DNA from: Callipepla californica brunnescens
Lineage: Eukaryota; Chordata; Aves; Galliformes; Odontophoridae
NCBI GenBank assembly: GCA_023055505.1
Contig: JALIRH010000124.1
Coordinates: 621,501 to 685,500, forward strand
Reading direction: 5' to 3'
Length of the DNA stretch: 64,000 bases
This document shows positions 22,120-44,533 of this stretch, one piece after another. The notes below the pieces were generated by a model that was given only the letters and a program-made list of their open reading frames with translations, was not told the origin of the DNA and searched no databases. Position numbers and translations under genes: made by a program. Each line of letters begins with the position of its first letter. Positions within the stretch are counted from its first letter, which is position 1.

Positions 22120-22180
22120 GGAGCCGCCGCCGCCGCCGCCGCTCCAACGCGCGGTTTCCGCAGTTTCCGCAGTTTCCGCG

Positions 22181-22194
22181 GTTCCCACGGCAAC
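22181..22194. promoter_or_regulatory. RFX X-box-like site, better match
   Basis: GTTCCCACGGCAAC differs little from the palindromic X-box GTTGCCATGGCAAC. It sits in a related repeat copy of the same CpG island, about 200 bases before the SGF29 start. Confidence 0.45.
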
Positions 22195-22387
22195 GGAGCC
22201 GCCGCCGCCGCCGCCGCTCCAACGCGCGGTTTCCGCGGTTTCCGCGGCGCCGCCACCGCCGCCGCCATAGTACTCCACCGCTCCGTTCATCTGCGGGGGG
22301 GGGGACTTCCGTTTCCGGCTTCCGGGACCGGCGCACGCGTAGTGCTATTCCCAGAGCCGCGCGCAGTGGGGGTGGGGCTGTTCGGCC

Positions 22388-22461
22388 ATGGCGTTGGCGG
22401 GGGGGGAGGTCGCGCAACGTGGAGCTCCTGGGGGAGCTACAGCGGCTGCTCGCGCACACGC
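22388..22461 (+). pseudogene. SGF29: SGF29 first coding exon, with one-base G-run disturbance
   Basis: SGF29 (CCDC101) is the SAGA/ATAC subunit whose tandem Tudor domain reads H3K4me2/3. ATG GCG TTG (MAL) opens the exon. After a run of eight G (22399-22406) the frame that matches the SGF29 N-terminal coiled coil (SRNVELLGELQRLLAHTQ) is one base out of phase with the ATG. The exon ends at CAG before donor GTGGGA, at the same point after TQ as I recall for the vertebrate gene. One G fewer in the run would put both parts in one frame, so this is either a sequencing error in a homopolymer or a true break. The next exons are not seen. Confidence 0.68.
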
Positions 22462-22800
22462 AGGTGGGAAAGGGGAGGGGGGGAGGAGTGGGGTGGCGGA
22501 GGGAGAAGGGGGGAATAGGGTGTGGGTGGGGTGGGGCGGAGTTGGGTGAGGGACGGGGATGTGGGGCTGGGGTTGGGGCTAATGGGGCTCGATGCTCGGT
22601 TCTAAGTCCGGGTGCTCAGTTAGGGGTCTGAAGGCTCTGTTATGGGGCTGGGGCTGCAGATGTGGGGTCGGGGTTATGGGGCTGGGGTCGGGGTTGTGGG
22701 TCCGGGGCCGTCGATGTGGGGGAGGGATCAGCCAGTCCTCATTGGTGGGCAACCATGGAAGGGGCGAGGACTCCAACAAAAGAAGCGGGGGGAAACCAGC
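22462..22800 (+). other. G-rich start of SGF29 intron 1
   Basis: G-rich sequence with repeated GGGGTTATGGGGCTGGGGTC-like units (22640-22700), able in principle to form G-quadruplexes, then about 100 bases of unique sequence before the second satellite block. No exon 2 of SGF29 is seen here. Confidence 0.55.
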
Positions 22801-25800
22801 AGCCTCACTGCTGCCCCATAGCCTCCTCATAGCTGCCCCACTGCAGCCCCATAGCTGCCCCACTGCTGCCCCGCTGCCACCCCATAGCCACCCCACTGCT
22901 GCCCCATAGCTGCCCCACTACTGCCTCATAGTGGCCCCATAGCCTCCTCAGAGCTGCCCGATAGCTGCCTCATAGCCACCAGATAGCCGCCCCATAGCTG
23001 CTCCATAGCCTCCCCATAGCCTCCTCATAGCTGCAACACTGCTGCACCATAGCTGCTCCATGGCTGTATAATAGCCGCCCGATAGCTGCCCCACGGCTTC
23101 CCAATAGCTGCCCAATAGCTGCCCGACTACTGCCACATAGCCGCTCTATACCTGCCCAATAGCCTCCTCATAGCTGTCCCACTGCAGCCCCATACCTGCC
23201 CCATGGCTGCCCCATTGCTGCCACATAGCCACCCCACTGCTGCCCCATAGCTGCCCCACTACTGCCTCATAGCGGCCTCATAGCCTCCTCAGAGCTGCCC
23301 GATATCTGCATCACTGCTGCCTTAGAGCCGCCCCATAGCTGCCCCACTGCTGCCCCATTGCTGCCTCACTGCAGCCCCATAGCTGCCAATGGCTGCCCCA
23401 TAACCTCCTCATAGCTGCCCCACTGCTGCCCCATAGCCGCCCCATAGCTGCCCCACTGCTAACTTATAGTTGCCCCACTACTGCCCCATAGCTTCCCCAC
23501 TGCTGCTCCACAGCCGCCCCAAAGCCTGCTCATAGCTGCCCCACTGCTGCCCCATATCTGCCTCATGGCTGCCTCATAGCCGCACCATAGCTGCCCCACT
23601 GCTGCCCCGTGTCTGCCTCATGGCTGCCTCATAGCCGCACCATAGCTGCCCCACTGCTGTCCCATAGCTGCCCTATAGCTTCCTCGTAGCTGCCCCACTG
23701 CTGCCCCATAGATGCAAAATGGCTGCCTCATAGCCGCTCCGTAGCTGCCCCACTGCTGCCCTATAGCATTTCCATAGCCTCTTCATAGCTGCCTCACTGC
23801 TGCCCCACAGCCACCCCATGGCTGCCTCATACCTGCCCCATAGCTGCCTCCTAGCCGCTCCATACATGCCCCATAGTCTCCCTATAGCGTCCTCATTGCT
23901 GCCCCACTACTGCCCCATAGCTGCCCCACTACTGCGTTATTGCTGCCCCACTGCTGCCCCATAGCTGCCCCATAACGTCCTCATAGCTGCCCCATAGCTG
24001 CCCCATACCTGCCTCACTGCTGCCCAATAGGTGCCCAAAGGCTGCCTAATAGCCGCCCCATAGCTGCCCCACTGCTTCCCAATAGCTGCCTTATATCTGC
24101 CCGACTGCTGCCCCATAGCTGCCTCATAGCCTCCCCATAGTCTCCTCATAGTTGCCCACACTGCTGCCCCATAGCCTTCCCATAGCTGCCTTAGCTGCCC
24201 CACTGCTGCCCCATATCTGCCCCATAGCCTCCTCAAGGCCTCCTCATAGCTAACCCATAGCTGCCTCACTCGTGCCCCATAGCTGCCTCTCTGCTGCCCC
24301 ATAGCTGCCCCATAGCCTCCTCATAGCTGCCTCACTGCTGCCCCATATCTGCCCAACTTCTGCCTAATTGCTGCCTCACTGCTGCACCATAGCTGCCCTA
24401 CGGCTGCCTCATAGTTGCCCCATAGCTGTCTCATAGCCACCCGATAGCTGCCTCCATAGCCTTCTCGTAGCTTCCTTACTGCTGCCCCATAGCTGCACCG
24501 TGGCTGCCCCATAACTGCACCGTGGCTGCCTCATAGCCGTTACATATCTGCCCCATAGCCTCCCCATAGCCTCCCCATAGCTTCCTCATAGCTGCCTCAC
24601 TGCTACCCCATAGCTCCCTCGCTGCTTCCCCATAGGTGCCCCATGGCTACCTCATAGCTGCCCCACTGCTGTCCCATAGCTGCCCCATGGCTGCCTCATA
24701 GCCACCCCATAGCTGACCCACTGCTGCCTCATAGCCACCCCATAGCTGACCCACCGCTGCCTCATAGCTGCTCCACTACTGCCCCATAGCTGCCTCACTG
24801 GTTTCTCATACCTACCCCATGGCTGCCTCATAACCTCACCATAGCTGCCCCACTACTGCCCCATAGCCACCCCGTCGCTGCCCCATAGCCTCCCCATACT
24901 TGCCCCATAGCTGTCTCACTGCTGCCCCATAGCTGCCCCATGGCTGCCCCATAGCCGCCCCGTAGCCTCAAAGCTGCCCCACTGCTGCCCCATGGCTGCC
25001 TCTTTGTTGCCCCATACCTGCCCCACTGCTGCCCTATAGCCACCCCATAGCTGCCTCACTTCTGCCCCATAACTGCCTCATATCCTCCCCATAGCCTCCT
25101 CATAGATGCCTCACTGCTACACAATAGCTGCCCCACAGCTGCCCCATAGCTGCCTCACTGCAGCCCCACAGCTACTTTTTGTCTGCCTCAAAGATGCCCC
25201 ATAGCTTCCTCATGGCCTTCCCATAGTCTCATCATAGCTGCCCCACTGCTGCCCCATAGCTGCCTTACTACTGCCCCTTGCTGCCCCAAGGCTCGCTTAT
25301 AGCTACACCATAGCTGTTTCACTACTGCCACATAGCTGCCCCATGGCTGCCCCATAGCTGCTCAACTGCTGCCCCATAGTCGCCCCATAGCTGCCCCACT
25401 GCTGCCCCATACCTGCTTCATAGCCTCCCCATAGTCTCCTCCTGCTACCCCACTGCTGCCCCATAGCTGCTCCATAGCCTCTCAAGAGACTCCTCATAGC
25501 TGCCCCACTTCAGCCCCATAGCCGCCCCATAGCTGCCTCACTGCTGCCCCATTGCCACCCCATGGCTGCCTAATAGCCGCCCCATAGCTGTCCCACTGCT
25601 GCCCCATAGCTGCCTTATAGGTGCCCCACTACTGCCACATTGCCGCTCTATAGCTGCCCCATAGCCACCCCATAGCTGCCCCCATAGCCTTCTCAATAGC
25701 TTCCTTACTGCTGCCCATAGCTGCCCCACTGCTGCCCCATAGCTGCACCGTGGCTGCCCCATAGCCTCCCCATAGCCTCATCATAGCTGCCTCACTGCTA

Positions 25801-26390
25801 CCCCATAGCTCCCTCGCTGCTTCCCCATAGCTGCCCCATGGCTACCTCATAGCTGCCCCATAGCTGCCCCACTACTGCCCCATAGCCACCCCATAGCTGC
25901 CTCACTGCTCCCCCATAGCTACATTTTGTCTGCCTCAGAGCTGCCCCATCGCTTCCCCATGGCCTTCCCATAGCCTCGTCATAGCTGCCAAACTACTGAC
26001 CCATAGCTGCTTCACTACTGCCCCATAGCTGCCCAATGGCTTCCCCATAGCCGCCCTATAGCTGCCCAACTACTGCCCCATAGCCTCCCCATAGCTGCCT
26101 CACTGCTCCCCCATAGCTGCCCCATGTCTGCTTCATCGCCGCCCCATAGCTGCCCCATAGCCTCTCGATAGCTGACCCATAGCTGCCCCATAGCCTCCTC
26201 ATAGCTGCCTCACTGCTGCCTGATTGCTGCCTCACTTCTGCCCCATAGCTGCCCAATGGCTTCCTCATAGCCGCCCCATAGCTGCCCCACTGCTGCCCCA
26301 TAGCTGCCTTATAGCTGCCCTACTACTGCCCCATAGCTGCCCCACTGCTGCCCAATAGCTGCCCCATAGCTTCCCCATAGCCTCCTCATA
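22801..26390. repeat. 11-bp satellite block 2 (TGCCCCATAGC)
   Basis: About 3.6 kb of the same 11-bp family as block 1, in the same orientation, so the CpG island with the SGF29 exon is embedded in one satellite field. It ends at CCTCATACC near 26390, where the 8-bp satellite begins within about 15 bases. Confidence 0.92.
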
Positions 26391-28710
26391 CCTTTCTTTT
26401 CTCTTATTCTGGCATTCTGACATTCTGACATTGTGACATTCTGAGATACTCTCATTGTCACATTGCAACATTGTTACATTCTAATATTCTCCCATTCTGA
26501 ACTTCTGGAATTATGACAACCTGCCGTTGTGACATTCTCCCATTCTGACATTATGACATTCTAATATTCTCACATTCTGAAGTTCTGGCATTATGACAAC
26601 CTGCCCTTGTGCTATTTTCACATTCTGACATTCTGACATTCTAGCATTGTGACATAGTGACATTCTGGAATTGTGACAACCTGTCATTCTGACATTCTGT
26701 CATTGTGATACTCTCACATTCTGCTATTGTGACATTCAGATATTTGGACATTCTGAAATTCTGGAATTGTGACATTCTGAAATTCTGGAAATGTGACAAT
26801 CTGTCATTCTCACATTGTGACAATGCAAAATTCTGATACTGTGAAATTCTGACTCTCTCTCATTGTGACATTGTGAGATTCTCACATCGTGGCATTGTGG
26901 CATTCTCACTTTCTCACATTCTGACATGTTAACATTGTGACATTCTAACATTCTCTCATTGTGATTTTCGGCCATATTTATCATCTGACATTGTGACGTT
27001 CTGTCACAGTCATATGTTGTCATTGTGACATTCTATCTTCATGACATACTGATATTGTGACTTTGTGGCATTGTGATACACTGACATTCTGAAATTGTGG
27101 CAATCTGTCATTGTGACTCTGTGACATTCTCCAATTCTGACATTCTCACATTCTAACGTTCTCACATTGTGTCATTCGGTCATTGTCATATTCTCACTTT
27201 CTGATATTCTCTCATTGTGATATCGTGACGTTGTGACAATTTGACATTCTGACATTAAGACATTCCGACATCATGAGATTCTCTCTTTCTCTCATTCTGA
27301 CATTTTGACATTGTGACATTCTCACTTTCTCATATTCTGCCATTCTGATATTCTGGCATTGTGACATTCTGAGATACTCACATTGTAACATTGTGACATT
27401 GTGACATTCTAATATTCTCACCTTCTGAAGTTCTGGCATTATGACGATCTGCCATTGTGATATTCTCACTTTCTGATATTATGACATTCTAGCGTTGTGA
27501 CATAGTGAAATTGTGACATTGTGACATTCAGACATGTTGACATTCTGAAATTCTGGAATTGTGACAACCTGTCATTCTCACATTGTGACAATGCAACATT
27601 CTGATATTGTGACATGATGACATTGTGACACTGTGACATTCTGAAATTCTAACTCTCCCTCATTCTGACGTTCAGACATTCTCACATTGTGACATTGTAA
27701 AACTCTGACTCTCTCTCATGGTGACATTCAGACATTCTGACATTCTGGCATTCTGACATTCTGACATTCTGGCATTCTGACATTCTCACAATGTGTCATT
27801 CGGTCATTGTCATATTCTCACTTTCTGATATTCTCTCATTGTGATATTGTGACGTTGTGACAATTTGACATTCTGACGTTAAGACATTCTGACATCATGA
27901 CATTCTCTCTTTCCCTCATTCTGACATTTTGACATTGTGACATTCTGAGATACTCTCATGGTGACATTGTGACATTGTGGCATTCTAATATTCTCACCTT
28001 CTGATGTTCTGGCATTATGACAATCTGCCATTGTGATGTTCTCACCTTGTGACATTGTGACATTCTAGCATTTTGACAATGCGTCATTCTGACGTTGTGA
28101 CATAGTGACATTCTGGAATTTGGAAAATCTTTCATTCTGACATTCTGTCATTGTGACATTCTCAGAATCTGACATTGTGACATTCTGATATTTTCACATT
28201 CTGAAATTCTGTAATCGTGACAATCTGTCATTCTCCCATTGTGGTATTTGTGACGTTCTTACACTGTTACATATTGATATTCTGACCTTGAGACATTGCG
28301 ACATTGTGACATAGTGATATTCTGTCATTCTGACATTTTGACATTCTCACATTCTCACTTTCTTACATTGTGACACTCGGTCATTGTGATATTCTCTCTT
28401 TTTCATCTCCTCTTATTGTGACTTTCTGACACAGTCATATTCCCTAATCTTGTAGTTGTGACACAGTGAAGATTTGACATTCTGACATTAAGACACTCTG
28501 ACATCATGACATTCTCACTTTCTCCCATTCTGACATGTTGACATTGTTGCATTCTAACATTCTCTCATTGCTATATTCTGACATATTTCTATTCTGTCAT
28601 TGTGGCATTCTCTCACAGACACATGCTGCCATTTTGACATTCTATCATTGTGACATTCTGACATTGTGACATTCTGAGATACTCTCATGGTGACATTCTG
28701 ACATTCTAAT

Positions 28711-29043
28711 TGTATGGGAACTGTTGAATCATGGCCTGAACCACTGATTGATCACCTGAGGCAAGCCCTGAGTCAGCTGCAGGGGCACAAGTGAGTGTGA
28801 TTGGAAGGGGTGGAGTTTGACTCCACCTCTGCCAAGACCCCATTTAAGGGCTGACCTCCAGCAGGGAAGGTTCTCTTGTTAGAGATCCCTCCCTTTTGGA
28901 GTTATTAGCGAGCCTCGACCATCATCAAGGTGAGCTCCTCTCTTTTCTTCTTGTTTGTATACCATTTTCTTAAGCCTACCTAAAATATACCGCCTTTCGC
29001 ACAATTTCCATGGAGTGCTTTTTTGGGGGTTATTTGCCCTATA
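28711..29043. mobile_element. LTR-like insertion, 333 bp, CTAAT target duplication
   Basis: Unique sequence inside the 8-bp satellite, flanked by CTAAT at 28706-28710 and 29044-29048. It starts TGTATGGGAAC and ends TTGCCCTATA, so the ends are near-inverted though not a perfect TG...CA. It has a CCAAT-like GTGATTGG and CATTTAAGG as a TATA-like box on plus, compatible with a solo LTR in plus orientation. I do not recognise the family. No coding sequence. Confidence 0.65.
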
Positions 29044-30225
29044 CTAATATTCTGACTTTCTCACATCGTGACATTCAGTCACTGTCATAATTCTCACTTT
29101 CTGATATTCTCTTACTGTGCTATTGTGGCATTGTGACAAGTTGACATTCTGACTTCATGACATTCTCTCTTTCCCTCATTCTGACATTGTGACATTGTCA
29201 CGTTCTGACATTCGGTCGTTGTGATATTCTCACTTTTTCATATTCTCTCTTTGTGACATTGTGACACAGTCATATTCCCTGATTTTGTAATTCTGATATT
29301 CTGACGTTCTGACATTCTGACATTCTCACAATGTGTCATTCATTCACTGGCATATTCTCACTTTCTGATATTCTCTCATTGTGATATTGTGACTTTGTGA
29401 CAATTTGACATTCTGGCATCATGACATTCTCTCTTTCCCTCATTCTGATATTCTGACATTGGGACATTCTCACTTTCTCGTATTCTGACATTCTGATATA
29501 TCAATAATCTGTAATTGCGACATTCTCTCATTGTGGCATTGTGACATTCTCTCATTCTGACACTGAAATTCTGAGATTTGTGATATTGTGACGTTCTCAT
29601 ACTGTGACATTCAGGCACTCTCACATTGGTTCATTCTGACATTCTGACGTTATGACATTTTGATGTTGTGACATTCACTCACTCCCATTCTGGCGTTTTC
29701 ACATTCTGACATTCTCACAATCTGGCATTCTAAAATTGTGGCCATCTCTCATTGTGACATTCACTCATTCTCACATTCTGATAGTTTGACAGTCTCTCTT
29801 GGTGACATTTTGAGGTTCTCTCGTTGTGACATTGTGATATTCTGACCTTCTGATGTTCTGACATTTTGACATTATAGCATTGTGACACTCTGACATTCTC
29901 TCCTTGTGACATTCTGACATTCCGATATTTTGACTTTCTCTCATTACCACATTCTGACATTCTGAAACTGTGGGAATCTGTCATTCTGACATTCTGTCAT
30001 TGTGATATTTGGACTTTGTGACATTTTGACATTTTGAAGTTCTGACATTCTGAGATCCTCTCATTGTGACACTGTGACATTGTCATTCACTTGGTGTTAT
30101 TATCTCTCATTGTGACGTTGTGACATTTTGATATTCCCCCGATTTTCTAATTGCGACATTCTGACATTCGGTCATTGTGATGTTCTCACTTTTTCATATT
30201 CTCTCATTGTGACGTTTTGACACAG

Positions 30226-31148
30226 TGTCACGCTCCAAAATAAAGGAGGGAGATGAGGTTCTTTATATGTATGTGTATACCCGATGGTGAGATTAAAAGG
30301 CAATGGTTCAAATTTTAGCCCAACCAGTTTATTACAATAAGTAGTTTTTTAGGGATATGGGGAAGGGAAGATGGGTGATAGAAAAGAGATGAAAAGCGAA
30401 GAGACTTGGCAGAAAGCAAGAAAGAGAAAGAGAGAGCATCAGCACCGTGGATCTGGCGAGGTCCGTAGTCCGTTGGTCTCAGGAATTCGTCTGGTCTCCG
30501 CGGGGGATGGGAGAAAGCCGGGAAGTTTTGCAGCAAGCAGGCGCTGTGCAGGGGGGTTCTTCCAAAGAGGTTTTTCCCTCAGGAAAGTCTCTTCTTCAAA
30601 GTCTTTGGTTTAGTGGTGTCGAGAAAACCAACTGAGCAACTCGACACACCAATGAGTTCTGTCAAGCGGCGCGCTGGGTACATGGGGGATTGCTTCACCA
30701 AACATGCGCACGTAAGAGAGAAATGAATAGCTATTTAAAGGTATAGCACATGCATATTCATCACATTCCAGACTCTGGTTATCGAGGGGATTAAACCTAA
30801 AGGTCAGTTTTGCTTTAAATTTTCAAACCTTGAAGGAGGAAAGCTCCTCACCATTCATGTGGGTGTTTTGTTTTAAGAGAGGCTTGTCTTGTAGGGACAA
30901 CAGGGTGTCTATCCTGCTTTCTTTAGCTGCCTCCGTGTTCTGGCATTAGTTTGATTTGTGCCCACCCAACACATCTGGCCCAACAGATAAATCAACAGGA
31001 GTAGTACTTTCGGTGCCATACAAGTATTATTGTCCTTTGTGATGATCAGCTTCTCCAAGCAGTTGTCAATTAGAGTCTTCTAGCCAGAAAGACCTCATGA
31101 AGCAAGCTTTGAGACAACAAAAGTAAAAAACAGTTGCTGTCTTTCACA
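30226..31148 (-). mobile_element. Solo LTR, 923 bp, CACAG target duplication
   Basis: Unique sequence in the 8-bp satellite with CACAG on both sides (30221-30225 and 31149-31153). The element begins TGTCACGC and ends TTTCACA on plus, so it has TG...CA ends. AATAAA lies on the minus strand (about 30328-30333) and a TATTTAAA-like box near 30730, giving the minus strand as transcription sense. Small open frames inside (about 30315-30635) look non-coding. The family is not identified. Confidence 0.68.
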
Positions 31149-32128
31149 CACAGTCATATTCCCTGAATTTTAATTGGGAGGTTGTGACGATTTGACATTC
31201 TGACATTAAGACATTCTGACATCATGACATTCTCCCTTTCTCACATTCTGACATGTTGACATTGTGACACTCTAATATTCTCTCATTGTGACATTCTGAC
31301 ATTCTGACATTCTTATATTCTCACCTTCTGATGTTCTGGCATTCTGACAATCTGCCATAGTGACATTCTGACATTGTGATATTGTGATATTATGACATTG
31401 TGGCTTTGTGACTTTGTGATATTCTCGCAGTGTCAAATTCTGTGATTCTGACATTCTGAGATTGTGACATCGTGGCATTTTGGGAATCTGGCATAGTGAT
31501 ATTGTGATATTCTCACATTTTGTCATTCTGGCATTCTGACAATCTGATATTGTGACATTCTCAGATTGTTACATTGCTGCGTTCTGAAATTCTCTCATTG
31601 TGACATTGTGAAGTTGTGAAATTCTGACATTCTGACATTATGATGTGATGTCTTTGTTACATTCTGAGATTGTGCCAATGTTACATTCTTCTATTCAGAT
31701 ACATTGTGACATTCTCAACTTAGGACATTCTGATATTCTTGCATTCTGACGTTGTGACATTCTGACATTCTGAAATTCGGACATTCTCACATAATCACAT
31801 TCTGACATCATTTCGTTCTCACATTCTGACATTCTGTTATTCTGACATTCTCATATTCTCACTTTGTGACATTGTGACGTTCTGACATCCTCACGTACTG
31901 ACATTCTGAAAATGCGACCTTCTGACATTGTGACACTAATATTCTGACTGTGAAATTTTTACATTCTGGTATTGTGACAGTCTTTTATTTTTGCATTGTG
32001 ACATTCTGACACTGTGACATTTTTAGATTCTCACATTGTGATATTTTGGCATTGTGAAATTCTAACCTTGTGACACTGACATTCTAACATTGTGATACTT
32101 TGATATTGTGACTGTCACATTCTGACAC

Positions 32129-35100
32129 CGTTAGGGTAGGGTTAGGGTTAGGTTTAAGGGGTAGGGTAGGGATGGGGTAGGGTTAGGGTTAGATAATGGT
32201 TAGGGTAAGTATTAGGGTCAGGGTTAAGGGTAGGGTGTGAGGTAGGGTTAGGGTTTTAGGGTTAGGGTAGGGTTAGGGTTAGGTTAGGGTAGGGTGTTGG
32301 GTTAGGGTAAGGGTAGGGTTAGGGTTAGGGGTTAAGGTTAGGGGTTAGGGTCAGGGGTTAGGTTTAGGGATAGGGTCAGGGTTAGGGTTAGAATTAGGGT
32401 AGGGTTAGGTTTAGGGTAAGGGTTAGGGTTAGGGTAGGGTAAGGGTTAGGGTTAGGGTTGGGTAAGGGTTAGGGGTAGGATTACGGGTAGGGTTAGTGTT
32501 ACAGTTAGGGTCCATCAATAGGGTTAGCAAAGGGTTAGGTGTTAGGGTTAGGGGTTAGGGTTAGGGTAGAACTAGGGTCCATCAATAGGGTTATGGTAGG
32601 GTTAGGGTTTAGGGTTAGGGTAGGGTTAGGGTTAGAGTAGAATTAGGGTTAGATTGGAGGGTTAGGGTAGGGTTAGGGTTAAGGGTTAGGGTTAAGGGTT
32701 AGGGTAAGGGTTAGGGTTAGGGATAGGGTAAGGGTTAGGGTAGGGCTAGGGTTAGGGATAGGTAAGGGTTAGGGTAAGGGTTAGTGTAGGGTTAGGGGTA
32801 GGGGTATGGGTAGGGTTAGGGTAGGGTTAGGGTTAGGGTTGGATTAGAATTTTCGGTAAGGGTTAGGGTTAGGAGTTAGGGTCAGTGTCAGGGTTAGGGC
32901 TTAGCGTTAGGGATAGGGTAAGAGTTAGGGTAGGGTTAGTGTTAGGGTTAGAGTTAGGGTAAGGGTAGGGTTAGGGTAGGTTTAGGGTAAGGTTAGGGTT
33001 TGGGTTAGGGGTTAGGGGTTAGGGCTAGGGTAGGGTTAGGTCTAGGGTAGGGCTAGGGTAGGGTTAGGGGTTTGTGTTAGGGTTAGGGGCAGGGTTAGGG
33101 TTAGGATTAGGGTAGGGTTTGGGTTAGGTAAGGGTTTGGTGTTAGGGCTTATGGGTTGGGGTTAGGGGTTAGGGTCACGGTTAGGGTAGGGTAAGGTTAG
33201 GGTTAGGGTTAGTGTTAGGGTTATGGTTAGGGGTTAGGGTAAATGTTAGGGTAGGGTTAGGGTTAAGGGTTAGGGTAGGGTTAGGGTTAGGTAAGGGTTA
33301 GGGTAGGGTTAAGGAGGGTTAAGGGTAGGGTTTGAGTCAGGGGTAGGGTAGGGTTAGGGATAGGGTTAGGGGTTAGGGGTTAGTGTTAGGGTAGAATTAG
33401 GGTTAGATTTGAGGGTTAGTGTAGGGTTAGGGTTAGGTAAGGGATAGGGTTAGGGTTAGGGTTAGGTGTTAGGGTAGGGTTAGGGATAGGTAAGGGTTAG
33501 GGTCAGGGATAGTGTTAGGGTCACTGTTAGGGTTAGGGTATGGTTAGGGTTAGGGTAGGGTTGGGGTTAGGGGCAGGGTTAGGGTTAGGGCTTAGGGGTT
33601 GGGGTTAGGGGTTAGGGTCACGGTTAGTGCAGGGTTAGGGTTAGTGTTAGGGTAAGGGTTAGGGTAGGGTTAGTTTTAGTGTTAGTGTTATGGTTAGGTA
33701 AGGGTTAGGGGTTAGGGTAAATGTTAGGGTAGTGTTAGGGTTAGGGTAGGGTTAGGGTTAGGTAAGGGTTAGGGTAGGGTTAGGGTCAGGGTTAAGTGTA
33801 GGGTTTGAGTCAGGGTTAGGTTTAGGGTGGGGTTAGGGTTAGGGTAGAATTAGGGTTAGATTTGAGGGTTAGTGTAGGGATAGGGTTAGGTAAGGGATAG
33901 GGTTAGGGTTAGGGGTTAGGGTAAGTGTTAGAGTAGGGTTAGGGTTAAGGGTTAGGGTAGGGTTAGGGATAGGTAAGGGTTAGGGTCAGGGATAGGGTTA
34001 GGGTCAGTGTTAGGGTTAGGGCAGGGTTAGGGTAGGGCTAGGGTTAAGGGTTAGGGTTAAAATTAGGGGTTAGGGGTTAGGGCTAGGGTAGGGTTAGGGG
34101 TTAGTGTTAGGGTTAGGGGCAGGGTTAGGGTTAGGGTAGGGTTGGGGTTAGGGGCAGGGTTAGGGTTAGGGCTTAGGGGTTGGGGTTGGGGGTTAGGGTC
34201 ACGGTTAGTGCAGGGTTAGGGTTAGTGTTAGGGAAAGGGTTAGGGTAGGGTTAGGGGTTAGGGTAGGGTTAGTTTTAGTATTAGTGTTATGGTTAGGTAA
34301 GGTTTAAAGGTTAGGGTAAATGTTAGGGTAGTGTCAGGGTAAGGGTTAGGGTAGGGCTAGGGTCGGGGTTAAGGGTAGGGTTTGAGTCAGGGTTAGGGTT
34401 AGGGTAGGGTTAGGGGTTAGGGTTAGGGTAGAATTAGGGTTAGATTTGAGGGTTAGTGTAGGGTTAGGGTTAGGGGTTAGGGTAAGGTTTAGGGTAGGGT
34501 TCGGGTTAAGGGTTAGGGTAGGGTTAGGGATAGGTAAGGGTTAGAGTAAGGGTTAGGGTCAGGGATAGGGGTAGGGTCAGTGTTAGGGTTAGGGTATGGT
34601 TAGGGTTAGGGGCAGGGTTAGGGTTAGGGTAGGGTTAGGGTTAGGGGTTAGGGTTAAAATTAGGGGTTAGGGCTAGGGTAGGGTTAGGGCGAGGATAGGG
34701 CTAGGGTAGGGTTAGGTGTTAGGGGCAGGGTTAGGTTTAGGGTGGGGTTAGGGCTTAGGAGTTAGGGTTAGGGCTTAGGGGTTGGGGTTACGGGTTAGGG
34801 TTAGGTTTAGTGTTAGGGTTATGGTCAGGTAAGGGTTAGGGTAAGGGTTAGGGGTTAGGGTAAATGTTAGGGTAGTGTTAGGGTGAGGGTTAGGGTAGGG
34901 TTAGGGTTAGGGTACGGTTAGGGTAAGTGTTATGGTTAGGGTAGGGTTAGGGTTAGGTTTTGGGTCCATCAATAGGGTTAGGGTTAGTTTAGATTAGGGT
35001 TAGTGTAGGGTTAGTGTTAGGGTTAGGGGTTAGGGTTAAGGTAGAATTAGGGTCGATCAACAGGGTTATGGTAGGATTAGGGTTTAGGGTTAGGGTAGGT

Positions 35101-35412
35101 TTAGGGTTAGGGGTTAGGGTTAGAGTAGAATTAGGGTTAGATTGGAGGGTTAGGGTAGGGTTAGGGTAGGGTTAGGGTTAGGGTTAGAGTAGGGTTAGAG
35201 ATAGGTAAGGGTTAGGGTAGGGTTAGGGTCAGGGTCAGGGTTAAGGGTAGGGTTTGAGTGAGGGTTAGGGTAGGGTTAGGGTCAGGGTTAAGGGTTGGGT
35301 TTGAGTCAGGGTTAGGGTCAGGGTTAGGGTCAGGGTTAGGGTTAGGGTAAGTGTTAGGGTTAGGTTTTGGGTCCATCAATAGGGTTAGGGTTAGTTTAGA
35401 TTAGGGTTAGTG

Positions 35413-35446
<34 letters not shown>

Positions 35447-38400
35447 TTTAGATTAGGGTTGGTGTAGGGCTAGTGTTAGGGTTAGGGTTTAGGGTTAGGG
35501 GTTACGGTAAGGGTTAGGGTTAGGGGTTAGGGTCAGGGATAGTGTCAATGTTAGGGTTAGGGTAAGGGTTAGGGTTAGGGGTTAAGTTTAGGGTAGGGTT
35601 AGGGTTAGGGTAGGGTTATGGTAAGGAATCAGTAGGGTTAGGGTTAGAGTTAGGGTTAGGGATCTGGTGGGTTGGGGTTAGGGTTTAAGGTTAGGGTTAG
35701 GTTTAGGGTAGGGTTAGGGTAGGGTTAAGGTTTAGGGTTAGGGTTAGGGATAGCTAAGGGTTAGGGTAAGGGATAGCGTTAGGGTGAGGGGTAGGGTTAG
35801 GGTAGGGCTACGGTTAGGGGTTAGGGTTAGGGGTTAGGTTTAGGGTAGTGTTAGGGTTAGGGTGAGGGGTAGGGTTAGGGTAGGGCTACGGTTAGGGGTT
35901 AGGGTTAGGGGTTAGGGTTAGGGTAGTGTTAGGGTTAGGTTAGGGTTAGGGGTAGGGGTATGGGTAGGGTTAGGGTAGGGTTAGGGTTAGGGTTGGATTA
36001 GAATTTACGGTAAGGGTTAGGTTTAGTGGTTAGGGTCAGTGTCAGGGTTAGGGGTTAGGGTTAGGGATAGGGTAAGAGTTAGGGTTAGGGTTAGAGTTAG
36101 GGTAGGGTTATAGTTAGGTTTAGGGTAGGGTTAGGGTAAGGGTAGAGTTAGAGTAGGTTTAGGGTAAGGGTAGGGTAGTGTTAGGGTAGGGTATGGGTTA
36201 GGGATTAGGGCTAGGGTAGGGTTAGGGGTTAGTGTTAGGTTTAGGGTTAGGGTAGGGTTGTGGTTAGGGTTAGGGTAGGGTTGGGGTTAGGGACAGGGTT
36301 AGGGTTTGGGCTTACGGGTTGGGGATAGGGGTTAGGGTCACGGTTAGGGTAGGGTTAGGTTAGGTTTAGGGTTAGTGTTAGGGTTATGGTTAGGTAAGGG
36401 TTAGGGTAAATGTTAGGGTAGGGTTAGGGTTATGGGTTAGGGTTATGGGTTAGGGGTAGGTAAGGTTTAGGGTAGGGTTAGGGTCAGGGTCAGGGTTAAG
36501 GGTAGGGTTTGAGTCAGGGTTAGGGTAGGGTTAGGGGTAGGGTTAGGGTAGGGTTAGGGATAGGTAAGGGTTAGGGTAAGGGTTAGGGTTAGGGATAGGG
36601 TAGGGTTAGGGTTAGGGTAGGGCTAGATGTAGGGGTTAGGGGTAGGGGTATGGTTAGGGTTAGGGTAGGGTTAGGGATAGGTAAGGGTTAGGGTAAGGGT
36701 TAGGGATAGGGTAGGGTTAGGCTTAGGGTAGGGCTAGATGTAGGGGTTAGGGGTAGGGGTATGGGTAAGGGTTAGGGTAGGGTTAGGGTTAGGTAAGGGT
36801 TAGGGTAAGGGTTAGGGTTAGGGTCAGGGATGGTGTAGGGTCAGTTTTAGGTTTAGGGTATGGTTAGTGTAAGGGGTAGGGTTAGGGTTAGGGTAGGGCT
36901 AGGGTTAGTGTTAGGGTTAAAATTAGGGGTTAGGAGTTAGGGCTAGGGTAGTGTTAGGGGTTAGTGTTAGGGTTAGGGTAGGGTTGGGGTTAGGGTTAGG
37001 GTTGGGTTGGGGTTAGGGGCAGGGTTAGGGTTAGGGCTTTGGGGTTGGGGTTAGGGGTTAGGGTCACGGTTAGGGTAGGTTTAGGGTTAGTGTTAGGGTT
37101 AGGGTAGGGTTAGGGGTTAGAGTAGGGTTAGTTTTAGTGTTAGGGTTATGGTTAGGTAAGGGTTAGGGGTTAGGGTAAATGTTAGGGTAGTGTTAGGGTT
37201 AGGGTAGGGTTAGGGTTAGGTAAGGGTTAGGGTAGGGTTAGGGTCAGGGTTAAGGGTAGGGTTTGAGTCAGGGTTAGGGTCAGGGTTAGGGTTAGGGTAC
37301 GGTTAGGTTAAGTGTTATGGTTAGGGTAGGGTTAGGGTTAGGTTTTGGGTCCATCAATAGGGTTAGGGTTAGTTTAGATTAGGGTTAGTGTAGGGTTAGG
37401 GGTTAAGGTTAGGGGTTAGGGTTAGGGTAGGGTTAGGGGTTAGGGTCAGGGTAAGGGTTAGGGTTAGAGTTAGGGTAGGGTTTGGTTTAGGGTAAGGGTT
37501 AGGGTAGGGTTAGGGTTGGGTTAGGGTTAGGGTAGGGTTAGGGTTAGGGGTTAGGGTAGCGTCAGGGGTTAAGGTTAGGATAAGGGTTAGGGGTTAGGGT
37601 TAAGGTTAGGGTAAGGGTAGGGTTAGGGATAGGGTTGGGGTTAGGGTTAGGGTAGGGTTAGGGCAGGGTTAGTGTTAGGGTTGGGTTGGGATTAGGGTAG
37701 GGTTAGGGTTAGGGGTTAGGGTAGAGTCAGGGGTTACGGTTAAGGGTTAGGGTTAGGGTAGGGTTAAAGTTGGGGTTAGGAATAGGGTTAGGGTTAGGTT
37801 AGAGTTAGGGTAGGGTTAGGGTAAGGAATCAGTAGGGTTAGGGTTAGAGTTAGGGTTAGGGATCTGGTGGGTTAGGGTTAGGGTTTAAGGTTAGGGTTAG
37901 GTTTAGGGTAGGGTTAGGGTAGGGTTAAGGTTTAGGGTTAGGGTTAGGTTTAGGGGTTAGGGTAGGGCTAGGGTTAGGGGTTGGGTTAGTGTAGGGGTAG
38001 GGGTATGGGTAGGGTTAGGGGTTAGGGTATGGTCAGGGGTTACGGTTAGGTTAAGGTTTAGGGTTAGAGTAGGGTTAGGAGTTAGGGTTAGGGTTAGGGT
38101 TAAGGATAGGGTTGGGGTTAGGGTTAGGGTAGGGCTAGTGTTAGGTTAGGGTTAGGTGTTTGGGTCAGGGTTAGTGTAGGGTTAATGTTAGGGTAGGGGT
38201 TAGGATTAGGTTTATGGTAAGGGTTAGGGTAGGGTTAGGGTAAGAGTTAGGGAAAGGTAAGGGTTAGGGTAAGGGTTAGGGTTAGGGTCAGTGTTAGGGT
38301 CAGGGTTAGGCTTATAGTATGGTTAGGGTAGGGTTAGGGTAGGGGTAGGGGTAAGGGTAGGGGTATGGGTAGGGTTAAGGTAAGGGTAGGGTTAGGGTTA

Positions 38401-41163
38401 GGTTTGGATTAGAGGTTACGGTAAGGGTTAGGGTTAGGGGTTAGGGTCAGTGTCAGGGTTAGGGTTAGGGTAGGGTTAGTGTTAGGGTAAGGTTTAGGGT
38501 TAGGGTTATGGTAAGCGTTAGGGTTAGAGTTAGGGTAGGGGTAGGGTTTGGGTTAGTGGTTAGGGTTAAGGTTAGGGGTTAGGGCTGGGGTAGGTTTAGG
38601 GCTAGGGTAGGGTTGGGTTTAGGGTTAGGGTGGGGTAAGGGTTAGGGGCAGGATAAGGGCTTAGGGGTTGGGGTTAGGGGTTAGGATTAGGGTAGGGTTA
38701 GGGTAAGGGTTAGGGTAGGGTTAAGGGTTAGGGTTTACGGTAGGGTTAGGGTTAGTGTTAGGGTAGGGTTATGGTTAAGTAAGGGTTAGGGTTAAGGTAA
38801 AGGTTAGGGTAGGGTTAGGGTTAGGTTTAAGGGGTAGGGTTTGGGTTAGATAATGGTTATGGTAAGTATTAGGGTCAGGGTTACGGGTAGGGTGTGAGTC
38901 AGGGTTAGGGTTTTAGGGTTAGGGTAGTGTTAGGGTTAGGTTTTGGGTCGATCAATAGGGTTAGGGTTAGATTAGGGTAGGGTTAGGATAGGGTTAGGGT
39001 AGGGTTTGTGTTAGGGTTAGGGTGTAGGGTTAGGGTTAGGGTAGGGTTAGGGTTAGGGGTTAAGGTTAGGGGTTAGTGTTAGGGTAGGGTAGGGGTAGGG
39101 TTAGGGTAGGGTAAGGGTTAGGGGTTAGGATTAGGGTTAAGGTGTTAGGAGTTAGGGTTAGGGTAGGGTTAGGGTTAGGGTTAGGGTTAGGGTTAGAATA
39201 GGGTAAGGGTTAGGGGTAGGGTTACGGGTAGGGTTAGGGTAAAGTTAGGGTTAGGGTTCCGGTTACGGTTAGGGTCCATCAATAGGGTTAGGGTTTAGGG
39301 TTAGGGGTTAGGGTTAGGTGTATGGGTAGGGGTAGGGTTAGGGTTAGGGTTAGGTTGGATTAGGGTTAGGGTTAGGGTTGGGTAAGGGTTAGGGGTAGGA
39401 TTACGGGTAGGGTTAGTGTTATGGTTAGGGTCCATCAATAGGGTTAGGCAAGGTTTAGGGTTAGGGTTAGGTGTTAGGGTAAGGGGTTAGGGTTAGTGTA
39501 GGGTTAGGGTCCATCAATAGGGTTATGGTAGGGTTAGGGTTATGGATAGGGTTAGAGTTAGGGTAGGGTTAGAGTTAGGGTTAGGGTAGGGTTAGGGTAA
39601 GGGTAGAGTTAGGGTAGGTTTATGGTAAGGGTAGGGTAGTGTTAGGGTAGGGTATGGGTTAGGGGTTAGGGTTAAGGTTAGGGGTTAGGGCTCGGGTAGG
39701 GTTAGGGGTTAGTGTTAGGGTTAGGGGCAGGGTTAGGGTTAGGGTAGGGTTGGGGTTAGGGTTAGGGTAGGGTTGGGGTTAGGGACAGGGTTAGGGTTTG
39801 GGCTTACGGGTTGGGGATAGGGGTTAGGGTCACGGTTAGGGTAGGGTTAGGTTAGGTTAGGTTTAGGGTTAGTGTTAGGGTTATGGTTAGGTAAGGGTTA
39901 GGGGTTAGGGTAAATGTTAGGGTAGGGTTAGGGTTAGGTTAGGGTTAGTGTTAGGGTTAGGGTTATGGCTTAGGGGTAGGTAAGGGTTAGGGTAGAGTTA
40001 GGGTCAGGGTCAGGGTTAAGGGTAGGGTTTGAGTCAGGGTCAGGGTCAGGGTTAGGGTTAGCACAGGGTTAGGGTAGGGTTAGGTGTTAGGGTAGGGTTA
40101 GGGTTAGTGTTAGAGTTATGGTTAGGTAGGGGTTAGGGTAAGGGTTAGGGGTTAGGGTAAATGTTAGGGTAGGTTTAGGGTTAAGGATTAGGGTAGAGGT
40201 AGGGTTAGGTAAGGGTTAGGGTATGGTTAGGGTAAGGGTTAGGGTTGGATTAGAATTTACGGTAAGGGTTAGGGTTAGGGGTTAGGGTCAGTATTAGGGT
40301 TAGGGGTTAGGGATAGGGTAAGAGTTAGGGTAGGGTTAGGGTAGGGTTAGAGTTAGGGTAGGGTTAGTGTTAGGGTTAGGGTACGTTTAGGGTTTGGGTA
40401 AGGGTTAGGGTGAGGGTTGGTGTTAGGGTAGGATTAGGGTTAGGTTCAGGGTTAGAGTAGTGTTAGGGTTTAGGGTTAGGGTTAGGGTATGGTTAGGGGT
40501 TAGGGTTGGGGTAAGGGTTAGGTTAGGGTTAGGGTTAGGGGGTTAGGGTTAGGGGATTAGTGTTAGGGTTAGGGGTTAGGGTTAGGGTGAGGGTTGGTGT
40601 TAGGGTAGGATTAGGGTTAGGTTCAAGGTTAGGGTAGTGTTAGGGTTCAGGGTTAGGGTTGTGGTAAGGTTTAGGGGACTGGTGTTAGGGGTTAGGGTAG
40701 GGTTAGGGTTAGGATTGGGATTAGGTTTAGGTTAGGGTTATGGTTAGGGTTAGGATAGGGTTAATGTAGGGTTAGGGTTAGTGATAGAGTAAGACTTAGG
40801 GTTAGGGTTATGGTAAGAGTTAGGGATTGGGATACGGTTAGATTTAGGGTTAAGAATAGGGTTCGGGTTTGATTAGGGTTAGGGTTAGTGTTAGGAATCA
40901 ATTTGGAGGAAGGAAAAGGTTTAGGAATTGGTTCATTGTTAGGGTTAGTCTTCAAGTTAGTAATAGAGTAAGGGTTAGTGTTCGGGTTAGGAATAGGGTT
41001 CTGAATAGGGCGAGGTTTGGGAATAGGATGAAGTTTAGGGTTAGGGTTCGGGTCAGATTTAGCACTATGTTTCAGGTTCCTTTTAGGTTTAGTGATAAGG
41101 ATTAGGGGTACGTTTAGGTATTGTACAATGCTAAGTGTTAGCTTCTGGGTGGGGGTTGGGGTT
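32129..41163. repeat. Degenerate telomere-like array, G-strand (TTAGGG) on plus, 9 kb
   Basis: TTAGGG variants (GGGTTA, AGGGTAGGG, TTAGGGG, TTTAGGG) without long perfect runs. Marker sequences recur, showing amplification of longer blocks: GGGTCCATCAATAGGGTTA near 32510, 32578, 34966, 35370, 37348, 39275, 39431 and 39511, and GGGTTTGAGTCAGGGTTAG near 33328, 34379, 35290, 36508, 37260 and 40027. The last part (about 40700-41163) is closer to the 4814-bp unit described below. No gene visible. Confidence 0.92.
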
Positions 41164-41737
41164 TGTCATGGTTTTATGATTTTTTGGTACTGGTATTCCA
41201 CATCATAACATCATGTATTGCATTAGGAGTTGAAGAGCTAATACTCCAGCTCCATAGATCATTGATAATTCCAGGTATACCTGTCTGAGAAGAGAAGAAG
41301 CACTACATTCCCCAGAGGACTTTGCGATGCTTTGTATTTTTACGTGTTTTCCGCTCAGAGGGAACAGATAAAAACCCTCAGCGGTCACGGGACACTCTCT
41401 TTCCTTCGGGATCGACTCAGCAGTGGGTGCTCGCTGCCGTATCGCCTTCAGCGTTAGCGTAAGGCCTTCGGTTTATCGGACACTCTCTCTTGCTCATTTT
41501 GTTTGATTCATTAGCCTCAATTCCAATTACATTGTATTATATTGTGTTATTTTGCTTTCTAATATCTTATTTAGTAAATTAGCTTTCCTCCTCAGATCGT
41601 TGCCGCTGTTTTGTTTCTAGGCCCATCTCCCTTTTCCCTTTTCCCTTTTTCCTTGCCCTTTCCTGGGGCGTGGGTCCGTGGGTCCCCGCAGCAATCGTCA
41701 CGGAACCGGGCCGATCCAGCCCGGTAAACCGTTGACA
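41164..41737 (+). mobile_element. Solo LTR of the ERV-L-like family, GGGTT target duplication
   Basis: TGTCATGG start, GTTGACA end, 574 bp, the same family as the LTR at 11812-12352. GGGTT flanks it on both sides (41159-41163 and 41738-41742). The paralogous empty site is intact in the 4814-bp units (GGGTT at about 54088-54092), so the insertion came after this sequence was duplicated, or hit only this copy. Recombination between LTRs would leave such a solo copy. Confidence 0.92.
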
Positions 41738-42350
41738 GGGTTAGATTAAGGGTGAGGGTTAGGATTAGGACTAGATTTAGGATTAGGTTTAGGAATAGGT
41801 TTTCTTTGATTGTTAGAGTGAGAGAAAGGTTAGGCCTTGGGTTTGTTTTTGGAATAGTTTTGGGTTTCAGAATAGGAATTGGGTTAGTATTTGGAATCTG
41901 TTTTGGTTTAGTATTAGTGTTAGGGTCAGGGTTAGAAGTTAGGTGATGGCTGTGGTAATCTAATGCTTTGTGTTAGGCTTAGGGTTGGGCTTAAATTTGG
42001 GGTTGGTTTTAAGGTCCCATTTAGATTTCAGGTAGAATTGGAGTTAAATTAAGGTAACGGTTAGGATTAGATTTAGGGTTCTGATAAGGGTTAGGTTAGG
42101 GTTAGGGTTTGGTTCCAAGTTGTTTTTAGGGTTAGGGTTAACGTTAGGTTTCAGGATAGGGTTAGGAATATAGCTAGGTGTTAGGTAAGGTTTAATCCTA
42201 GGGTTTCAGTTCGGGTTAGGTGAAGCATTAGTTTTACAGTTAGAAGACATGTTAGGGTTAGGGTTAGGTTTTGGTGTAGATTTAGGTTTAGGGTAAGGGT
42301 TAGGGATGTAGATGAAGGTTTAGTGGAAGGGGTAGGGTTCTCTTTAGTTT
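41738..42350. repeat. Diverged telomere-like repeat, paralogous to the 4814-bp units
   Basis: Resumes the sequence interrupted by the LTR (TTAGATTAAGGGTGAGGG) and runs parallel to about 54093-54980, with differences such as missing segments. It ends in GGACCCACAGCACAGAACCC, where C-rich minisatellite takes over. Confidence 0.8.
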
Positions 42351-42937
42351 TAGGACCCACAGCACAGAACCCGGCCCCAAAAGGGCACGAACGGACCCCA
42401 TAACCCAGCCCTATAATGTCGATATCTGACCCCAAAACTCAGCACCAAAATCCTGCAATTCCACCCCAAAATCTCCATTATCAGCCCCAGAATCCGATTA
42501 TTTCCCCCAAATGTCAGCCCCAAATCCCATTAGTTCCCCCCTGACCCCACAATTTTCCCCCGACCCCATAATTCCCCCCCATGACCCTATAATTTCCCCC
42601 CCAACCCCATCAATTCCCCCCTGTGACCCCATTACTTCACCTCCTGACCCTGTTACTTCCCCTATTCCCCCCGACCCTATAATTGCCCTAGAACAGCCGC
42701 AGGACGATTCCTCGGTGCTGTTTGAGGTCACATCAGCCCAACCCCATTACTTTCCCCGCGTCCCCATAATTCACCTGTTCCCCCCGTGACCCCATTAATT
42801 TCCCCTCTGACCCTATTAGTTCCCCTGTTCCCCCTCCAACCCTTTAAATTCCCCCTGACCCCATAATTCCCCCTGACCCCATTGCTTTCCTCCCGACCCC
42901 ATAAATTCCCCCTGACCCCATAATTGCTCTATAACAG
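42351..42937. repeat. C-rich minisatellite (GACCCCATAATTCCCC), SGF29 intron
   Basis: Irregular units of about 17-20 bases built on TGACCCCATAATTCCCCCC. C-runs of four or more at short spacing give the minus strand G-quadruplex potential. It includes a duplicated exon start at 42697-42726 and abuts the last SGF29 exon. Confidence 0.8.
42697..42726 (+). pseudogene. SGF29: Duplicated start of the last SGF29 exon
   Basis: AACAG acceptor followed by PQDDSSVLFE codons, then GTCACATC, which diverges. It repeats the first 30 bases of the exon at 42938 with one synonymous change (GAC for GAT), 241 bp upstream. A tandem duplication with the minisatellite unit is the simplest source. Confidence 0.75.
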
Positions 42938-43195
42938 CCGCAGGATGATTCCTCGGTGCTGTTTGAGGACACGTTGTACGCTGACGGATATTCATCGCCA
43001 CTCAACGTCGCACAGCGCTACGTTGTGGCCTGCAGGGACACCAAGAAGAAGCGACCCCGTGTGGCCGTTTTGGGGCCGTTCCAGGATTTGGGTTTTTTGG
43101 GGTCATTAGGGCCGATTTACAGTCACTTTGGGGTCACTCTGGAGCACTTTGGGGTGCAGTGCTGCATCGTGGCCTGCAGAGACACCAAGAAGTGA
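42938..43195 (+). CDS. SGF29: SGF29 last coding exon, with extended reading frame
   Basis: After acceptor ATAACAG it reads PQDDSSVLFEDTLYADGY, SSPLNVAQRYVVACRDTKKK: the C-terminal end of the SGF29 second Tudor domain, nearly identical to the vertebrate protein. SGF29 normally stops right after the final lysines. Here the next codon is CGA and the frame runs on for about 43 residues to TGA 43193-43195, ending in a second copy of VACRDTKK. A T-to-C change of an original TGA would explain this. Middle exons are missing from the window. Confidence 0.72.
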   Translation, partial: PQDDSSVLFEDTLYADGYSSPLNVAQRYVVACRDTKKKRPRVAVLGPFQDLGFLGSLGPIYSHFGVTLEHFGVQCCIVACRDTKK

Positions 43196-43375
43196 CCCCA
43201 TAGGGGATTTGATATGGTCCTTATGGGGTCGTTATAGGGTTTTGGGGTCACTTTGGGGTCATTTTGGGGCCCTTTGGGGCGCAGCGCTTCCAAGAAGTGT
43301 TGGAAGTAATCTGGGATATTTGGGGTCATTTTGTGTCACATCGGGGTCACTTCGGGTCATTGCACGTTGGGGCGT
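43056..43375. repeat. G-rich minisatellite (TTTGGGGTCAC) around the SGF29 3' end
   Basis: Units of about 11-13 bases built on TTTTGGGGTCA or CTTTGGGGTC. The array overlaps the extended SGF29 frame, which explains the low-complexity tail of that frame. A copy of the exon end (43164-43195) is embedded in it. Confidence 0.7.
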
Positions 43376-43674: not shown

Positions 43675-43689
43675 GTCAGTGGCAGGGCG

Positions 43690-44510: not shown

Positions 44511-44533
44511 GCCCCACAGAGGTGCTCCCGCAG

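What the first reader, a model, noticed from the sequence alone, without database searches (positions are those of the whole stretch)
22388..43195. SGF29 reduced to first and last exons, separated by about 20 kb of satellite, telomere-like DNA and LTRs
Exon 1 (22388-22461) sits in a CpG-island promoter and the last exon (42938-43195) has an acceptor and strongly conserved sequence, both on plus and in the right order. No middle exon (coiled-coil remainder, first Tudor) is visible between them. Either satellite expansion replaced the gene body, the exons were lost in assembly, or this is a decayed copy of SGF29. If the gene is alive, it would be a chromatin-reader gene with a huge satellite intron.
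Basis: partly seen in the sequence, partly recalled or inferred. Interest (0 to 1): 0.8.

Follow-up and report, generated by a model that had tools for sequence, protein, structure and literature searches.

The report
Amplified SGF29 relic in satellite DNA
This is not a living gene with a giant intron but one of about 500 nearly identical copies of a broken chromatin-reader gene, spread with its overgrown intron repeat through satellite-rich DNA of a gamebird genome, while an apparently intact gene sits elsewhere.

Summary
In detail: window 22388-22463 is SGF29 exon 1 and 42938-43054 its last exon (exon 9), with no middle exon found and satellite, TTAGGG-like DNA and an LTR-like insert between them. 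Searching the whole genome changes the reading. An apparently intact SGF29 (nine coding exons in 4.2 kb) lies on contig C43. The window copy cannot make SGF29: exon 1 has an extra base, exons 2-8 are absent, the TGA stop is CGA, and joining exon 1 to exon 9 gives 28 residues and a stop. It is one unit of a homogenised amplicon: exact exon 1 with its splice donor occurs 516 times, the exact exon-9 end with the lost stop 487 times. On ten contigs 79 of 92 exon-1 places have exon 9 downstream on the same strand, 16-32 kb away. Median unit spacing is 82 kb, roughly 40 Mb of 1,085 Mb. The 11-bp satellite matches the living gene's 235-bp intron 3 in motif, period and strand, and in an older copy it abuts exon 4; it most likely grew out of that intron. 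Promoter CpGs are better preserved than the rest, so germline activity of the promoter remains open.

The parts
21949..22721 (+). SGF29 promoter / exon 1 / intron 1 island
   Evidence: Aligns to the living locus L033 4235-4900 at 77%. CpG observed/expected 1.08 in 21970-22480 against 0.19-0.20 in the flanking satellite. DNA search: 642 candidates, 40 scored, all 40 at 98-100% identity, the window included.
22388..22463 (+). Exon 1, frameshifted (76 nt against 75 in the living gene), GT donor kept at 22464
   Evidence: Other copies have 76, 77 or 78 nt because the G run varies. Exact 64-bp exon-1 end plus donor: 516 places.
22719..22798 (+). Probable remnant of intron 2; exons 2 and 3 are missing on either side of it
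   Evidence: Aligns to L033 5118-5190, between exon 2 (ends 5000) and exon 3. Short alignment, score 58, no control made.
16230..21945 (+). 11-bp satellite (CCCCATAGCTG-like), left array
   Evidence: Same motif, strand and 11-bp period as intron 3 of the living gene.
22798..26381 (+). 11-bp satellite, right array, where intron 3 should lie
   Evidence: CCATAGC 26 per kb, against 34 per kb in the living intron 3 and 0.8 per kb in the rest of the living gene.
26406..32127 (+). 8-bp satellite (TGACATTC-like), interrupted
   Evidence: Matched in place in one other unit.
32130..40895 (+). Degenerate TTAGGG-like array
   Evidence: its first 3 kb matched in place in one other unit.
41165..41741 (+). 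LTR-like insert inside TTAGGG-like DNA
   Evidence: Read by eye; a relative (79%) lies at 11889-12302. Limits uncertain.
42355..42356 (.). Junction: TTAGGG-like flank joined to SGF29 intron 8; in the C97 copy this flank lies about 4.6 kb upstream of the intron-8 join point, with satellite and exons 4-8 in between
   Evidence: Window 42301-42355 = L034 1516-1570 (98%); window 42355-44800 = L034 6148-8423 (86.6%). Sequences at the join share about 1 base, by eye.
42691..42756 (+). Partial copy of exon 9 with its splice acceptor, in intron 8 (exon stuttering)
   Evidence: Block 42533-42731 repeats 42777-42972 at 77%; tblastn match 42691-42756.
42938..43054 (+). Exon 9 with intact acceptor; TGA stop replaced by CGA (43052-43054)
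   Evidence: Exact stop-loss end found at 487 places.
43157..43195 (+). Partial copy of the 3' end of exon 9, carrying the TGA at which the read-through frame ends
   Evidence: Block 43013-43163 repeats 43157-43288 at 68%.
43371..43750 (+). Downstream CpG island copied together with SGF29
   Evidence: 91% identical to L033 9026-9415.

Best explanation
The locus is one unit of a large, probably heterochromatic amplicon built round a decayed, unprocessed duplicate of SGF29 in a galliform bird. Shown: an apparently intact parent gene on another contig; disabling lesions in the window copy; about 500 units with identical exon-1 and exon-9 ends, mostly paired at 16-32 kb; and a satellite with the motif, period and strand of the parent's intron 3. 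Inferred course: a whole-gene copy left its locus and at some point lost constraint. Its short intron-3 repeat, no longer bounded by exons that had to be kept, grew into a kilobase satellite. Exons 2 and 3 were lost in small deletions. A deletion with about 1 base of microhomology joined TTAGGG-like DNA to intron 8 and removed exons 4-8. The product, about 80 kb with ERVs, satellites and a 4.8-kb TTAGGG-like higher-order repeat, then spread and was homogenised in satellite-rich arrays. It makes no SGF29 protein.
For: Living gene: L033 holds all nine coding exons, with exon 8 identical to chicken at the protein level, and GT-AG at all eight introns (read by eye). Lesions. Copies: exact 43-bp exon-9 end with lost stop at 223 + 264 = 487 places; exact 64-bp exon-1 end with donor at 240 + 276 = 516 places; reversed controls 0 in both. 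Median of 71 spacings on 7 of the 11 contigs listed: 82 kb. Nineteen exon-9 loci besides the window (3.4 kb each) match it at 96.8-99.9% in the longest piece; nine exon-1 loci besides the window (3.8 kb each) at 94.6-99.97%. Pairing: of 92 exon-1 places on ten contigs listed in both pattern searches, 79 have an exact exon-9 end downstream on the same strand within 35 kb (15.9-32.3 kb, median 22.3; 76 of them at 18-30 kb), 13 do not. DNA between the exons kept in place in the one C95 unit tested, 93.7% over 7.1 kb. Satellite source; in the C97 copy the satellite ends at L034 3485 and exon 4 begins at 3522.
Against: Signs of constraint: pooled pairwise pN/pS among distinct copies is 0.36 for both exon 8 and exon 9, and exon 8 against the parent has Ks 0.11-0.42 and Ka 0.02-0.07. 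Counted as single events the picture is weaker: 25:19 and 22:15 nonsynonymous to synonymous against neutral expectations of 2.1-2.2 and 1.6-2.5, one-sided p 0.06-0.09 and 0.08-0.50. So the founder may have been a working paralog for a time, or some copies may be constrained. The left-hand satellite (16230-21945), upstream of the promoter, is not explained by a single collinear gene copy. The 11-bp motif could be common in genes of such chromosomes and not peculiar to SGF29 (not tested). 'Heterochromatic' is inferred from sequence; no chromatin data were used. Thirteen of 92 exon-1 places and 12 of 91 exon-9 places lack an exact partner.
Confidence: 0.88

Rival explanations
1. A living SGF29 gene with a 20-kb satellite intron, spliced exon 1 to exon 9 or with unseen exons.
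For: Donor and acceptor are both intact and the promoter island is preserved.
Against: The ATG frame is +1, no exon 2-8 was found, the stop is lost, and direct splicing gives 28 residues and a stop. A complete gene exists elsewhere. In the exon-9 protein search the best of 27 hits covers 45% of the query at 87% identity and none covers more than 48%, so the read-through tail was not matched.
Confidence: 0.03
2. A non-coding but active amplicon: the copied SGF29 promoters stay unmethylated in the germline and transcribe satellite RNA, as testis-expressed amplicons do in chicken dot-chromosome heterochromatin.
For: Promoter and upstream island changed 5 of 51 parental CpGs to TpG/CpA, against 24 of 69 in exon 9 with its 3' flank, intron 8 and the downstream island (Fisher p 0.002; with intron 1 added to the promoter side 6 of 60, p 0.0009), at similar overall identity (0.90 against 0.90-0.92). 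Huang 2023 reports testis-biased amplicons on seven of ten dot chromosomes.
Against: No expression or methylation data were available. The signal reflects the founder lineage before homogenisation and could come from a time when the copy was still a gene. Only TpG/CpA changes were counted: in promoter plus exon 1, 20 of 28 CpGs are kept, 4 became TpG/CpA and 4 changed otherwise. Regions were chosen after looking.
Confidence: 0.25
3. Exon 1 and exon 9 come from two different decayed SGF29 copies that now lie side by side, not from one copy.
For: Satellite lies on both sides of the exon-1 island, and TTAGGG-like DNA sits between satellite and exon 9. In the C97 copy the same TTAGGG-like flank lies upstream of the satellite.
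Against: Promoter, intron 1, intron-2 remnant, intron-3-like satellite and intron 8/exon 9 are in parental order and orientation.
Confidence: 0.3
4. Assembly error: middle exons collapsed or joined wrongly.
For: Arrays of this kind are hard to assemble.
Against: The same arrangement recurs on many contigs, on both strands, with unit-specific differences and a shared junction.
Confidence: 0.03

Closest known systems
[quoted passage not shown] 2023, PMC9974502; one section in full and 12 passages seen)
   Same: Hundreds of near-identical gene-derived units in satellite- and ERV-rich DNA of a galliform genome.
   Different: Here the seed is a decayed fragment of a conserved chromatin-reader gene, with a satellite resembling its own intron; the genome's species is not identified. 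The paper's main text does not name SGF29 (0 occurrences); its supplement was not seen. Expression and chromosome were not tested.
Sequence stuttering of dot-chromosome genes (Hron et al. 2026, PMC12954441; abstract, one Results section whole, first parts of another Results section and of the Discussion seen)
   Same: Short imperfect repeats within introns; partial exon copies with splice sites in the neighbouring intron, seen here at exon 9 and, as a partial exon-5 copy, in the living gene.
   Different: They report repeats isolated inside introns with coding regions intact, and state that they met no pseudogenes left after lost genes. Here the repeat has outgrown a gene copy whose exons were not kept; SGF29 itself is not lost.
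SGF29 (SAGA-associated factor 29)
   Same: Exon 1 and exon 9 sequence, exon boundaries, promoter.
   Different: No exons 2-8 found: the rest of the coiled coil and nearly all of the tandem Tudor (domain layout recalled).

Membership tests
SGF29 gene (functional) | Open reading frame from the start ATG through exon 1 | tested here: not met
   76 nt, +1 frameshift
SGF29 gene (functional) | Exons for coiled coil and tandem Tudor (PF07039) | tested here: not met
   No exon 2-8 found in the window
SGF29 gene (functional) | Conserved C-terminus and stop | tested here: not met
   Y5S, S13L, P20S at positions where 130, 129 and 129 of 130 homologs agree (17 of 147 with more than 15 differences had been dropped); TGA to CGA. 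R33 and D34 also occur in the species' living gene, so they are not decay.
Unprocessed pseudogene | Introns or promoter retained, disabling lesions, intact parent elsewhere | tested here: met
Dot-chromosome heterochromatic amplicon (Huang 2023) | Multicopy near-identical units in satellite-rich arrays | tested here: met
Dot-chromosome heterochromatic amplicon (Huang 2023) | Location in pericentromeric heterochromatin of dot chromosomes | not testable with these tools
   Contigs are unnamed. Exact exon-1 copies also lie near the ends of larger contigs: C6 (42.11 of 42.15 Mb), C53 (3.43 of 3.62 Mb), two on C28 (9.84 and 9.91 of 10.31 Mb).
Dot-chromosome heterochromatic amplicon (Huang 2023) | Testis-biased expression | not testable with these tools
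   No RNA data
Sequence stuttering (Hron 2026) | Partial exon copies with splice site in the adjacent intron | tested here: met
   42533-42731 repeats 42777-42972; acceptor and first part of exon 9 copied
Sequence stuttering (Hron 2026) | Repeats confined between intact exons | tested here: not met
   Exons 2-8 not present
Sequence stuttering (Hron 2026) | Length variation between individuals | not testable with these tools
   One genome only; between its units the exon 1 to exon 9 distance is 15.9-32.3 kb

The most novel reading that the evidence does not exclude
About 500 copies of the SGF29 promoter, kept unmethylated in the germline, drive long transcripts through a satellite that grew out of SGF29's own intron. 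A housekeeping chromatin-reader gene would then have given rise to a new, actively transcribed satellite amplicon that is still spreading between chromosomes.
Probability: 0.2. Interest if true: 0.82.

Novelty: new variant of a known kind. Interest (0 to 1): 0.6.

Why it matters
It gives a traceable case of satellite birth: the living 235-bp intron repeat, an older copy with the satellite beside exon 4, and the homogenised arrays lie in one genome. It suggests that conserved exons keep intron 'stuttering' in check, and that once a gene copy is free the repeat can run away and seed, by estimate, about 4% of a genome. It also warns annotators: one-exon matches to a conserved gene can occur hundreds of times.

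Tried and rejected
Rejected: coding gene with a giant intron; assembly loss; a processed copy (introns and promoter are present). Left open: constraint on the copy family (disagree in strength). First taken as decay and then dropped: K33R and E34D in exon 9, which also occur in the species' living gene. No tRNA or Rfam match. Pfam found no domain in the two claimed exons. Paper searches for SGF29 with chicken, avian, galliform or amplification terms showed no title on SGF29 amplification among those listed (20 of 46, 15 of 6,889, 15 of 4,878); only open-licence papers are searched. Species not identified: the five hits that bear an organism name among 23 of the ERV gag search are galliforms, and exon 1 scores higher with turkey (64) than with stork (50). 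A first pairing count (12 of 12 exon-1 places of the 40 scored, plus 4 of 4 on C95) rested on capped lists and is replaced by 79 of 92, which has misses. Dropped before counts: L019 (indel copy) and, by a 13% distance limit, apparently L031; the two listed C87 places (listing cut) and six exon-1 places on C6, C28, C37, C53, C59 (no exact exon-9 end listed there); four of eleven contigs.
Full report
OBSERVATION. Both claimed exons are real. Exon 9 (42938-43051) matches SGF29 at E 1.7e-14 in solved structures and 1.8e-16 by tblastn with chicken SGF29. Exon 1 (22388-22463) is weak by tblastn alone (E 0.16-0.20) but scores 64 against turkey exon 1, while the best of 1000 shuffled queries reached 48, and it aligns to the species' own exon 1 at 85.5%. 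No middle exon was found. Satellite, TTAGGG-like DNA and an LTR-like insert lie between the two.

LIVING GENE. The window is C124:621501-685500 of a 1.085-Gb genome in 321 contigs. A protein search of that genome (126 places scored of 857 candidates, a lower bound) has its best match on C43. In L033 (C43:4645001-4655000) all nine coding exons lie within 4.2 kb, from MALVSADSRIAELLAELQRLLAHTQ to VVACRDTKKK and TGA, and GT-AG borders can be read by eye at all eight introns. Exon 8 is identical to chicken SGF29 at the protein level. A partial copy of the exon-5 end lies in the next intron (E 1.4e-4), like the exon stuttering described for chicken dot-chromosome genes (PMC12954441).

LESIONS. Against that gene the window's exon 1 has one extra base (76 against 75 nt) and the ATG frame is lost. 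Exon 9 carries Y5S, S13L and P20S, and its TGA is CGA. Position 5 is Y in 130 of 130 homologs, position 13 is S in 129 and position 20 is P in 129 (17 of 147 with more than 15 differences were dropped first). Joining exon 1 to exon 9 gives 28 residues and a stop. The R and D near the end, which looked like decay at first, are also in the living gene.

AMPLICON. The 371-bp exon-9 block has 596 candidate places; the 40 scored are all given as 100% identical. The exact 43-bp end with the lost stop occurs 487 times and the exact 64-bp exon-1 end with donor 516 times, reversed controls 0. Only the first 100 places of each are listed, in contig order: exon-9 ends from C47 on, exon-1 ends also on C6, C28 (2) and C37. 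The median of 71 spacings on seven contigs is 82 kb, so about 40 Mb in all by estimate. The exon-1 island by DNA search has 642 candidates; the 40 scored are 98-100% identical. Of 92 exon-1 places on ten contigs listed in both pattern searches, 79 have an exact exon-9 end downstream on the same strand within 35 kb (15.9-32.3 kb, median 22.3 kb) and 13 do not; 12 of 91 exon-9 ends are left without a partner. The DNA between the exons is kept in place in the one C95 unit tested (93.7% over 7.1 kb). Of 19 exon-9 loci besides the window, 18 align in one piece of at least 2.95 kb across the 42355 junction, and the other (L050) aligns in two pieces, one of which (41704-42918) crosses it.

SOURCE OF THE SATELLITE. 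Intron 3 of the living gene is a 235-bp array with an 11-bp period (identity at lag 11: 0.67) and CCATAGC 34 per kb, on the same strand as the window's satellite (0.65-0.66 and 26-27 per kb); the rest of the living gene has 0.8 per kb. In the C97 copy (L034) the satellite ends at 3485 and exon 4 begins at 3522. I infer that the satellite is the overgrown intron. Similar motifs may occur in other genes of such chromosomes, which was not tested.

HOW THE MIDDLE WENT. Window 22719-22798 aligns, shortly, to intron 2 of the living gene, so exons 2 and 3 seem to have gone in separate small losses. Window 42301-42355 matches the TTAGGG-like flank upstream of the satellite in the C97 copy (98%), while 42355-44800 matches that copy from intron 8 onward (86.6%). 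One deletion with about one shared base at the join would remove satellite and exons 4-8. Whether exon 1 and exon 9 come from one copy is not settled: a second satellite array lies upstream of the promoter.

SELECTION AND PROMOTER. Signs are mixed. Pooled pairwise pN/pS among 19 distinct copies is 0.36 for exon 8 and 0.36 for exon 9, which points to constraint at some time. Counted as single events, nonsynonymous to synonymous changes are 25:19 in 19 distinct exon-8 copies and 22:15 in 17 exon-9 copies (L019 and apparently L031 left out), against neutral expectations of 2.1-2.2 and 1.6-2.5; one-sided p 0.06-0.09 and 0.08-0.50. The founder may have been a working paralog for a time; the window unit is not. 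The promoter and upstream island kept their CpGs better than the rest (5 of 51 turned TpG/CpA against 24 of 69, Fisher p 0.002; transitions to transversions 14:27 against 58:41, p 0.01). This fits germline hypomethylation of the founder's promoter, but the comparison was framed after looking and no methylation data exist here.

COMPARISON. Huang et al. 2023 (PMC9974502; one section in full and passages seen) describe hundreds of gene copies, often testis-biased, in pericentromeric heterochromatin of chicken dot chromosomes. Hron et al. 2026 (PMC12954441; abstract, one Results section whole, first parts of another and of the Discussion seen) describe sequence stuttering and state that they met no pseudogenes left after lost genes. 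The present case seems to join the two: a decayed copy of a stuttering gene became the core of an amplicon. It looks like such amplicons; membership in the dot-chromosome class is untested, because contigs are unnamed.

Noticed in passing
window 9005-9130 (-), within ORF 8819-9250: A 42-residue fragment matching exportin-1 (XPO1/CRM1), E 2e-14 against solved structures: a second gene fragment in the same unit.
   Followed up: partly
window 50900-64000, continuing in L068 (C124:685501-695500): A 4.8-kb higher-order repeat built of TTAGGG-like DNA, copies 97-99% identical, nearly five units in tandem over 23 kb.
   Followed up: partly
window 13100-16230 (+) and 46720-51000 (-); also 1981-2917 (-): Broken endogenous retroviral genes (RT, RNase H, integrase, avian gp85-like envelope); the left element ends where the 11-bp satellite begins. 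Described only.
   Followed up: no
Loci on C134, C40, C97, C57, C63, C89, C122, C197: Older SGF29 copy groups that still hold exon 8 (63 PF07039 places in the genome, the living gene included); in the one C134 copy fetched at length (L035) only exons 7-9 were found, and in the C97 copy (L034) exons 4-9 with stops.
   Followed up: partly
C28, C53 and C112 copies (L036, L037, L030): A separate subfamily with exon 1 and exons 8-9 close together (C28 also exon 2) and GGA in place of the stop; in C112 exon 1 has 78 nt, a multiple of three.
   Followed up: partly
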